In this document: piece after piece, positions 55,001-58,000 of the stretch
Layout: each line of letters starts with the position of its first letter
Position numbering within the stretch: position 1 is the stretch's first letter
Assembly (NCBI RefSeq): GCF_032854445.1
Contig: NC_088295.1
Location: 28,321,385-28,385,384, forward strand
DNA: 64,000 bases
Direction of reading: 5' to 3'
Source of the DNA: Liolophura sinensis
Lineage: Eukaryota > Mollusca > Polyplacophora > Chitonida > Chitonidae
Notes under the pieces: model-generated
What the model was told of the DNA's origin: nothing
Databases searched by the model: none
The model's input: only the letters and a program-made list of their open reading frames with translations
Position numbers and translations under genes: made by a program

Positions 55001-58000
55001 AATTCTTCAACTGTATTACAATTCACATATTACAACAATGAATGTTTTCACTGTTTTGTCTTTCATTTTTTCATCTAAATATGCAATTTTCTCCACACAC
55101 ACTGTAAAAAGCAATTCTCTTGATGCTATGACACATTTCTGACAATTTACCGAAAATGTCAAGTTTAACAATATTTCTTTATTTCTTAAGTTATTTAACA
55201 ACTAAGGCATGTAAGGATCCTTCTAGAGAATCCCTTGGACTTGTTGCATTCTTAACGATTACTTTTACTTTGAGAGTAAAGGACATCATTCCTGATTTAT
55301 TAGCGTTGTGCAAGTGTGCTGGTTTAGTGCTTGAGAAATTGGCATACTCAGAATCGCAGCAACACTCTTGTGGTGTAAATATCAACTGCATGACATAGAC
55401 TCAGTGTTGCATTGTGTTTTCCTGCAGTCATAAGCCAGTTGCCAACAGGTGACACAGAGTTGATCCTGACCAGAAGTCTTGCTGTGGATGTGAAAGGGGA
55501 ACTAAGGACAGAGGCCATACGTTTGCCTAATGCCATACAAGGAGGGCGGCCAGGAGCATTGCCCAACATTAAGGTAATGCAACAGCTAAATCTCTAGGGT
55601 GGGGTGGTACTGATAGGGACAGTGATAGGAGAGCTGAGAACAGAGGCCATACATCTGTCTAATGTCCTATGGGAAGGGCAGCCAGGAGCATTGCCCAACA
55701 TGAAGGTAATGCGACAGCTAAGTCTGTAGGGTGCTGATAGGGACAGTGATAGGAGAGCTGAGGAGAGAGACCATACATCTGCCTACTGTCATATGGGAAG
55801 GGTGACACCACAGTAGGATCTATAGGGGTGGGATGGTGTTGATAGGGATAGCGATAGGAGTGCTGAGGAAAGACGCCATACATCTGCCTACTGTCAGATG
55901 GGAAGGGTGACACCACAGGTGGATCTATAGGGGTGGGATGGTGCTGAGAGGGACAGTGATAGGAGAACTGAGGACAGAGGTCATACATCTGCCTACTGTC
56001 ATATGGGAAGGGTGACACTACAAGTGGATCCATAGGGGTGGGATGGTGCTGAGAGGGACAGTGATAGGAGAGCTGAGGACAGAGGCCATACATCTGCCTA
56101 CTGTCATATGGGAAGGGTGACACCACAGGTGGATCCATAGGGGTGGTGTGGTGCTGAGAGGGACAGTGATAAGAGAGCTGAGGTCATAGGCCATACATCT
56201 GCCTAATGTTATATGGGGAGGGCAGTCATGAGCATTGTCCAACATTAAGGTAATGCCACAGGTAGATCTGTAGGGTTGGGGTGGTGCTGGTACAGCCCAC
56301 AAATTGCTGTCATTGCTGCCTACATGTAGCTTAATTCAGTATAGGAGGTTGGCGTTCTTGTTGTTATAATATATTTTTTTTTGTTCTCATCAGTCTGGAC
56401 ATCAATCATTTTTTCTTACTGTTACAATGTGTAACCTGATTTCAGTACAAGACTGTTAATGTTAAGGATCCAGTTCACATTGCTACCTGACCTGTTTTGA
56501 TTTCTGTACAAGATTGTTAATGTTAAGGATCCAGTTCACATTGCTACCTGACCTGTTTTGATTTCTGTACAAGATTGTGAATGTTAAGGATTCAGTTCAC
56601 ATTGCTACCTGATCTGTTTGATTTCTGTACAAGACTGTTAATGCTAAGGATCCAGTTCAAATTGCTACCTGACCTGTTTTGATTTCAGTACAAGATTGTT
56701 AATGTGAAGGATCCAGTTCACATTGCTACCTGATCTGTTTTGATTTCAGTACAAGATTGTTAATGTTAAGGGTCCAGTTCACATTGCTACCTGACCTGTT
56801 TGATTTCTGTACAAGATTGTTAATGTTAAGGATCCAGTTCACATTGCCACCTGACCTGTTTTGATTTCTGTACAAGATTGTTAATGTGAAGGATCTAGTT
56901 CACGTTGCTACCTGACCTGTTTGATTTCAGTACAAGACTGTTAATGTTAAGGATCTAGTTCACATTGCTGCCTGACCTGTTTGATTTCTGTACAAGACTG
57001 TTAATGTTAAGGATCTAGTTCACATTGCTGCCTGACCTGTTTGATTTCAGTACAAGACTGTTAATGTTAAGGATCTAGTTCACATTGCTGCCTGACCTGA
57101 TTGATTTCAGTACAAGACTGTTAATGTTAAGGATCTAGTTCACGTTGCTACCTGACCTGTTTGATTTCTGTACAAGATTGTTAATGTTAAGGATCTAGTT
57201 CACATTGCTGCCTGACCTGTTTGATTTCTGTACAAGATTGTTAATGTTAAGGATTCAGTTCACATTGCTACCTGACCTGTTTTGATTTCTGTACAAGACT
57301 GTTAATGTTAAGGATCCAGTTCACATTGCCACCTGACCTGTTTGATTACTGTACAAGATTGTTAATGTTAAGGATTCAGTTCACATTGCTACCTGACCTG
57401 TTTTGATTTCTGTACAAGACTGTTAATGTTAAGGATCCAGTTCACATTGCCACCTGACCTGTTTGATTACTGTACAAGACTGTTAATGTTAAGGATCCAG
57501 TTCACATTGCCACCTGACCTGTTTGATTACTGTACAAGACTGTTAATGTTAAGGATCTGGTTCACGTTGCTACCTGACCTGTTTGATTTCTGTACAAGAT
57601 TGTTAATGTTAAGGATCTAGTTCACATTGCCACCTGACCTGTTTGATTTCTGTACAAGACTGTTAATGTTAAGGATCTAGTTCACATTGCTACCTGACCT
57701 GTTTTGATTTCAGTACAAGACTGTTGAAGATCCTGTCCGTCGTAATGTGAGGAACATGATGGCAACTGGAGCCACTATCAAAGGTCAAGGTCAGCTGCAG
57801 CGTTTGCGGGGCCTGAACCTGATGCCTGAGGAGGTGCAGTATGGAGTGTTGAAGGAAGGTTACACCTATGCTTATACCGTGTCTCTGAGGAACACCGGCT
57901 CAGACTCATGCCGCTTCAAGATCCGCCAGCCCCCACCCAGCACGGGACTGCGGGCTCTCTATAAACCAGGACCAGTAAGCTTTGCCATTCACTTGACAAA

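What the first reader, a model, noticed from the sequence alone, without database searches (positions are those of the whole stretch)
56443..57713. The 3' splice site of the same intron is amplified about 21 times
The acceptor region plus the start of exon 35 is the repeat unit of a 60-61 bp array that ends at the true acceptor. Most units carry CTG in place of CAG, but six keep CAG and are potential decoys, each leading to an early stop. The predominance of inactivated decoys could reflect selection against mis-splicing, or spread of one CTG variant by unequal exchange. With the donor-side array, this intron (55574-57713) has been built from its own two ends.
Basis: partly seen in the sequence, partly recalled or inferred. 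Interest (0 to 1): 0.8.

Follow-up and report, generated by a model that had tools for sequence, protein, structure and literature searches.

The report
Splice-acceptor minisatellite in chiton SPAG17
In a chiton's sperm-tail gene the end of one intron and the first letters of the next exon have been copied head to tail 21 times, a kind of repeat first described in lancelets and found here several times in one stretch of a mollusc chromosome.

Summary
Window 56437-57725 holds 21 tandem units of 60 or 61 bp, each an intron 3' end (CTGAC or CTGAT, pyrimidine tract, CAG or CTG) plus the diverged head of the next exon, ending at the authentic acceptor 57711-57713. Six units keep CAG, 15 have CTG; all read into a stop after 14 codons. 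The gene is SPAG17; assembly statistics point to the chiton Liolophura japonica. The kind is known: lancelet "mirages", minisatellites spanning exon-intron boundaries. The same intron has a donor-side one, and three more lie in the surrounding 264 kb (cadherin, VPS13, an unnamed predicted exon). Predicted exon boundaries are not enriched for local copies (9 of 232 against 558 of 5439 non-exon windows), so chance birth of minisatellites suffices. Silencing of decoys by selection is not supported in general: two other acceptor arrays keep AG in 14 of 16 and 3 of 3 upstream units. One hint remains: nine CTG units next to the exon, seen in 2.3-6.8% of comparable neutral simulations. Splicing was not observed.

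The parts
55428..55573 (+).
   Evidence: gene-finder script, translation, SPAG17 alignment
55490..56292 (+). donor-side array (132-, 124- and 105-bp steps) carrying the exon tail; donor copies GTAATG at 55574 (true), 55706 and 56250; four 105-bp units lack the donor
56293..56436 (+). the only stretch of the intron outside the two arrays
56437..57713 (+). acceptor-side array (intronic part): 21 units of 60/61 bp, each exon head + CTGAC or CTGAT + pyrimidine tract + CAG or CTG
56443..56445 (+). decoy acceptor CAG before unit 1; upstream context is unique intron (9 nt identical to the true site); score -0.12
56686..56688 (+). decoy acceptor CAG, identical to the true site over 28 nt upstream; same score 2.35
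56747..56749 (+). decoy acceptor CAG, score 2.88, above the true site (2.35) in a generic matrix
56928..56930 (+). decoy acceptor CAG, score 1.00
57048..57050 (+). decoy acceptor CAG, score 1.00
57108..57110 (+). decoy acceptor CAG nearest the exon (603 bp upstream of the true site), score -0.12
57168..57652 (+). stretch with nine acceptor positions in a row (before 57171 to 57653) that all carry CTG
57711..57713 (+). authentic acceptor CAG
   Evidence: homology across the junction, gene finder
57714..57974 (+).

Best explanation
It is a boundary-spanning minisatellite of the kind named 'mirage' in lancelets. A segment of about 60 bp, roughly half intron end and half exon head (read by eye), was duplicated in tandem and grew to 21 units by replication slippage or unequal exchange (inferred). 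A second array grew in the same way from the donor end of the same intron. Splicing most likely still uses the outermost, exon-proximal acceptor at 57713, because only that site lies close to the downstream donor (261-nt exon, against 864-1529 nt for the CAG decoys; the mechanism, exon definition, is inferred). Decoys, if used, would give a stop after 14 codons (shown from sequence) and probably mRNA decay (inferred). CTG in 15 units is best read as one A-to-T change spread by exchange. The array is a tolerated by-product of a minisatellite-rich genome and has mainly made the intron longer.
For: Unit anatomy and counts. Identical units inside the array, u14=u16 and u15=u17=u18, as after recent block duplication. 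One decoy is identical to the true acceptor for 28 nt upstream and scores the same, and another scores higher, so the local signal alone does not single out the true site. SPAG17 homology supports 57713. Similar arrays lie at a cadherin exon donor, a VPS13 exon acceptor and an unnamed predicted exon acceptor within 264 kb. Predicted boundaries are not enriched for local copies: 9 of 232 against 558 of 5439 non-exon and 17 of 343 exon-internal windows. Lancelet mirages have the same anatomy and are reported not to disturb splicing (PMC3087553 and PMC3902484, passages). In human CBS 844ins68, a 68-bp duplicated intron 7/exon 8 junction, the more distal copy is strongly favoured (PMC2630376, passage).
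Against: No transcript was available, so sole use of 57713 is not shown. Four of the six CAG decoys, including the one nearest the exon, score below the true site (-0.12 to 1.00 against 2.35), so weaker local signal may also protect the true site. The run of nine CTG units next to the exon occurs in only 2.3-6.8% of neutral simulations with a similar CTG count, so some selection is not excluded. Counting arrays rather than boundaries, I accept 5 of 48 as lying on a junction against 1.0-2.6 expected from random segments, which would allow enrichment.
Confidence: 0.82

Rival explanations
1. Selection has silenced decoys: CTG was favoured because CAG copies near the exon compete with the true acceptor, so array composition is shaped by splicing fidelity.
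For: 15 of 21 decoys lack AG. The nine nearest the exon all lack it: 0.017 if positions were independent, 2.3-6.8% in neutral simulations. In the VPS13 array the unit nearest the exon has also lost AG, as CGG.
Against: The VPS13 array keeps AG in 14 of 16 upstream units, and the L024 array in 3 of 3 although they lead to a stop and the nearest lies 129 bp from the true site. All 15 SPAG17 losses are the same A-to-T change. The CAG/CTG column is not unusual among the 17 variable columns (minor counts 10, 9, 8, 6 for CAG, 5, 4 and less). Part of the nine-unit run is identical units 14=16 and 15=17=18.
Confidence: 0.12
2. The decoys are used as regulated poison acceptors: splicing to an upstream CAG gives a stop after 14 codons and lowers SPAG17 output in some tissues.
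For: Six decoys with intact AG, two scoring as well as or better than the true site; all lead to a stop.
Against: No transcripts and no test of conservation were possible; the decoys would need exons of 864-1529 nt; lancelet mirages are reported not to disturb splicing.
Confidence: 0.03
3. Assembly artefact: the array was wrongly expanded in the assembly.
For: The same assembly holds what looks like a tandem concatemer of the mitochondrial genome (C99).
Against: Units differ at 17 of 61 columns, so they are not one unit copied by the assembler. The 2.1-kb intron is shorter than the mean HiFi read of 8,347 bp reported for L. japonica. The same kind of array recurs at other exons.
Confidence: 0.03

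Closest known systems
Mirages of lancelets (Adh3, globins BflGb6 and BflGb9, troponin C, PGBD5); PMC3087553 and PMC3902484, passages seen
   Same: Tandem units made of an intron end plus part of the exon, next to the authentic junction. BflGb6 is the acceptor case, BflGb9 the donor case. Many but not all units keep AG/GT. Inner units are homogenised.
   Different: Here a mollusc and not a lancelet; 21 units against 6 and 3 in the two BflGb6 haplotypes; both ends of one intron carry arrays; splicing and length polymorphism not tested here.
Human CBS 844ins68; PMC2630376, passage seen
   Same: A duplicated intron/exon junction gives two candidate splice sites and the more distal one is strongly favoured, so mRNA is normal.
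   Different: One extra copy of 68 bp, not an array; human. The passage calls the sites 'donor' although the junction is intron 7/exon 8.
Human CBS 31-bp VNTR at the exon 13-intron 13 boundary; PMC1395315, PMC5188458 and PMC2630376, passages seen
   Same: Variable tandem array across an exon-intron boundary (16-21 repeats).
   Different: Donor side and 31-bp unit; higher repeat number is reported to go with lower enzyme activity.
Exon-intron boundary tandem repeats in human segmental duplications; PMC2812944, passages seen
   Same: Tandem repeats at exon-intron boundaries that alter intron structure.
   Different: Recent human paralogs in segmental duplications; some form novel introns, whereas here an intron appears to have lengthened.

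Membership tests
mirage (boundary-spanning minisatellite) | tandem units that span an exon-intron boundary | tested here: met
   21 units of 60/61 bp containing intron end and exon head
mirage (boundary-spanning minisatellite) | array adjoins the authentic junction, which forms the last unit | tested here: met
   array ends at 57725; acceptor 57713 supported by homology
mirage (boundary-spanning minisatellite) | many but not all units keep the splice dinucleotide | tested here: met
   6 of 21 units keep CAG, a minority
mirage (boundary-spanning minisatellite) | concerted evolution of inner units by exchange | tested here: met
   identical units 14=16 and 15=17=18; all four combinations of CAG/CTG with three or four T; pattern only, no second haplotype
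mirage (boundary-spanning minisatellite) | length differs among haplotypes | not testable with these tools
   one copy found in the assembly, no reads
mirage (boundary-spanning minisatellite) | normal splicing of the host mRNA | not testable with these tools
   no transcripts
mirage (boundary-spanning minisatellite) | host lineage in which it was described (lancelets; not a structural criterion) | tested here: not met
   assembly statistics match the chiton L. japonica; mitochondrial gene order as I read it is of ancestral mollusc type (the comparison order is recalled)
intron gain by tandem duplication (Rogers model) | the intron position is new | not tested
   intron positions of other species were not available

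The most novel reading that the evidence does not exclude
Chiton genomes continually seed minisatellites across splice junctions, so many introns grow from copies of their own ends and carry rows of decoy splice sites. Some arrays are frame-preserving and stop-free, as in VPS13, where 11 of 14 upstream AG sites would add 19-residue repeats in frame, which makes them a ready source of new exon sequence. Decoys close to an exon tend to be weeded out by selection (SPAG17 and the nearest VPS13 unit fit; the L024 array does not).
Probability: 0.2. Interest if true: 0.65.

Novelty: new member of a known kind. Interest (0 to 1): 0.42.

Why it matters
The papers I saw describe boundary-spanning minisatellites in lancelets and in some human genes. 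Five such arrays in 264 kb of a chiton chromosome suggest that they are a general product of minisatellite-rich genomes. They are natural experiments on how the spliceosome picks one of many near-identical 3' splice sites, since here one decoy is identical to the true site for 28 nt upstream. They also show how an intron can grow from its own ends.

Tried and rejected
Lancelet origin: suggested by the mirage papers, rejected. No GFP-family match was found (the search rang in no control genome, so it is not evidence of absence). The mitochondrial gene order as I read it from translated frames and the assembly statistics (609,464,459 bp in 632 contigs; C1 of 96,433,062 bases; against 609,495,693 bp, 632 and longest 96,433,062 in PMC11068029, passages) point to the chiton Liolophura japonica.

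Second haplotype or paralogous copy: none found (one search gave one further match, within the same array). ARAGORN found no tRNA in the mitochondrial pieces (bacterial settings).

Enrichment of tandem copying at exon boundaries: not supported by the boundary-centred test. There 6000 random windows were drawn, and 218 that were part exon, part not, entered neither control count. The array-centred count is higher than expected (5 of 48 against 1.0-2.6), but the expectation depends on how many predicted exons are trusted.

Flagged but not counted as mirages: 148618-148877 overlaps, mostly inside, a plus-strand predicted exon (score 13.5) that sits among minus-strand VPS13 exons; the exons at -571, -156 and 991 score 8.2-9.5. 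Two arrays near -90800 lie inside a predicted exon. The array at -79545 begins 9 bp after a well-scoring predicted exon (29.0), but the boundary test found no copy of that junction. Arrays at -266 and 19542 lie within 30 bp of predicted exons scoring 9.5 and 15.5. None of these was followed further.

Pfam found no domain in 5 of 6 peptides given (cadherin-like, VPS13 C-terminal and unnamed exons among them) and one VPS13_VAB match just below cut-off elsewhere in the VPS13 gene. PDB sequences identified the cadherin and VPS13 exons; the YFKV exon taken alone matched VPS13A weakly (i-Evalue 0.069), the joined query strongly (2.1e-22). The unnamed exon had no match and rests on the script's coding score.

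Literature: boundary-spanning minisatellites outside lancelets were sought (required the word amphioxus). None of the listed papers was seen to report one in a mollusc; the abalone TSSK1-like paper (PMC6905558, passages) has an intronic minisatellite not described there as spanning a boundary, and the Conus paper listed was not opened. In one search the six papers listed of 3,868 did not mention 844ins68. The original Adh mirage paper (Canestro 2002) is not held and is known to me only through citing passages.

Full report
What is there. Tandem Repeats Finder reports an array at 56437-57725 with a 60-bp (or doubled 121-bp) unit. Cutting at TACAAGA gives 21 units and the real exon. The consensus unit has TACAAGACTGTT, exactly the start of the exon, then AATGTTAAGGATCCAGTTC, which resembles the next exon bases GAAGATCCTGTCC (peptide TVNVKDPV in the units, TVEDPV in the exon; compared by eye), then a branch-point-like CTGAC (CTGAT in two units) with its A about 17 nt before the exon in the true site (counted), a short pyrimidine tract, and CAG or CTG. 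CAG stands before 56446, 56689, 56750, 56931, 57051, 57111 and the true 57714; CTG before the other 15. Translation from any upstream copy stops after 14 codons. In the consensus the stop TGA lies inside the CTGAC motif.

The gene. Exon peptides match the solved chain named sperm-associated antigen 17 (9ijj_x, E 4e-37, 4.5e-49 and 3e-25; the organism is not shown) and, more weakly, PF6 (2.2e-07). The junction of the two exons aligns (YKTVEDPV with YAKVEDPV, after a gap of three residues just before it). A small gene-finding script trained on this window picks 55428-55573 and 57714-57974 as exons (its training set included the second exon, so that acceptor choice is not wholly independent).

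The other end of the intron. Copies of the exon tail with its donor AAG|GTAATG lie at 55571 (true), 55703 and 56247, with the same donor score of 2.58. Four 105-bp units between the last two have another sequence in place of the donor. Only 56293-56436 of the intron 55574-57713 lies outside the two arrays.

Whose genome. The window's contig C1 has 96,433,062 bases, the length of the longest scaffold of Liolophura japonica in PMC11068029 (passages); the contig number of 632 agrees and the total length differs by about 31 kb. By my reading of the translated frames, the mitochondrial contig has COX3-ND3-ND2-COX1-COX2-ATP6 on one strand and ND5-ND4-ND4L-CYTB-ND6-ND1 on the other (COX1 by Pfam), which I recall as the ancestral order of molluscs.

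What kind of thing. [quoted passage not shown] The globin BflGb6 has an acceptor-side one (3' end of the intron plus 5' part of exon 2) with 6 and 3 units in two haplotypes, many but not all repeats keep AG/GT, and splicing is said not to be disturbed (PMC3087553, passages). PGBD5, Adh and troponin C are further cases (PMC3902484, passage). Human CBS has a duplicated intron 7/exon 8 junction in which the more distal copy is strongly favoured (PMC2630376, passage) and a 31-bp array at exon 13-intron 13 (passages). Human boundary repeats can form novel introns (PMC2812944, passages). The SPAG17 array meets the structural features of a mirage; polymorphism and splicing could not be tested.

Is it special in this genome? 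I joined 100 kb on either side to the window and found 48 arrays (period at least 15, at least 2 copies, score at least 80) and 116 predicted exons. Besides the two SPAG17 arrays, three more straddle or adjoin splice junctions: the donor of a cadherin-like exon (L010 2352-2597; exon joined to the next one matched CELSR1 at 2.8e-21), the acceptor of a VPS13 exon (L022 7815-8761, minus strand; YFKVLVQE opposite YFKVLIQE of a VPS13A chain), and the acceptor of an unnamed predicted exon (L024 5962-6447, minus strand). A test centred on boundaries found local copies at 9 of 232 predicted boundaries, against 558 of 5439 random non-exon windows and 17 of 343 exon-internal windows. Four of the nine I do not count as mirages (three low-scoring exon predictions and one exon made largely of an array). 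So junctions are not preferred, and mirages look like the share of random minisatellites that happens to fall on a junction. The array-centred comparison (5 accepted of 48 against 1.0-2.6 expected) leaves room for enrichment; one search flagged five arrays as spanning a boundary, of which I rejected one (148618), and I added the VPS13 array, which it listed as adjoining.

CAG against CTG. In the 21 units 17 columns vary, with minor counts of 10, 9, 8, 6 (CAG), 5, 4 and less, so the CAG/CTG split is not unusual. All losses are A to T, and both states occur with three and four T in the pyrimidine tract, as expected from exchange. In the VPS13 array 14 of 16 upstream sites keep AG (one of them as TAG) and the two losses differ (CAT, CGG); in the L024 array 3 of 3 keep CAG (the L024 pattern required CAG, but three copies plus the true site account for its 3.8 TRF copies). 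Against this, the nine SPAG17 decoys nearest the exon are all CTG: 0.017 if positions were independent, 2.3-6.8% under six settings of a simple neutral duplication model of my own, among runs with 13-17 losses. In that model 15 or more losses arise in 2.7-20.8% of runs. I take this as a hint, not as proof.

How splicing probably copes. The decoy at 56689 is identical to the true site for 28 nt upstream and has the same generic score, 2.35; the decoy at 56750 scores 2.88; the other four score -0.12 to 1.00. So for at least two decoys local sequence does not mark the true site as better. Distance does: 57714 gives a 261-nt exon, the CAG decoys 864-1529 nt. Exon-proximal choice by exon definition is my inference, supported by the CBS and lancelet precedents. 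CTG units still hold AAG 6 nt downstream, which scores low (0.93 at best).

Verdict. A real, clear array; a new member of a known kind, in a phylum for which searches listed no earlier case that I saw. The selection reading is not supported in general. Use of the acceptor and polymorphism remain untested.

Noticed in passing
L022 7815-8761 (minus strand), exon L022 7712-7814: VPS13 exon with an acceptor-side mirage of 57-bp units (TRF 16.7 copies; 17 sites with the true one). 14 of 16 upstream sites keep AG; 11 of those 14 are in frame with the exon and without a stop, so their use would add 19-residue repeats to VPS13.
   Followed up: partly
L024 5962-6447 (minus strand), predicted exon L024 5886-6027: Acceptor-side mirage of 129-bp units with very roughly 75-90 nt of exon head (by eye); the three upstream copies keep CAG and read into a stop after 33 codons. 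Gene not identified.
   Followed up: partly
L010 2352-2597, exon L010 2270-2389: Donor-side mirage of 74-bp units (3.3 copies) at a cadherin-like exon; after the true GTAAGA the copies read GTATTA, GCTAAG and, in the diverged last one, GGAATA.
   Followed up: partly
window 55490-56292: Donor-side array of the same SPAG17 intron; three donor copies with equal scores, the true one included, and four 105-bp units with another sequence in place of the donor.
   Followed up: partly
G000 contig C99 (108,685 bases); C632 (15,209 bases): C99 holds seven matches of mitochondrial COX1 (one partial) at about 15.5-kb spacing, apparently a tandem concatemer of the mitochondrial genome in the assembly.
   Followed up: no
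window 19542-20251: 22-bp array of 32.6 copies that is open in several frames on both strands.
   Followed up: no
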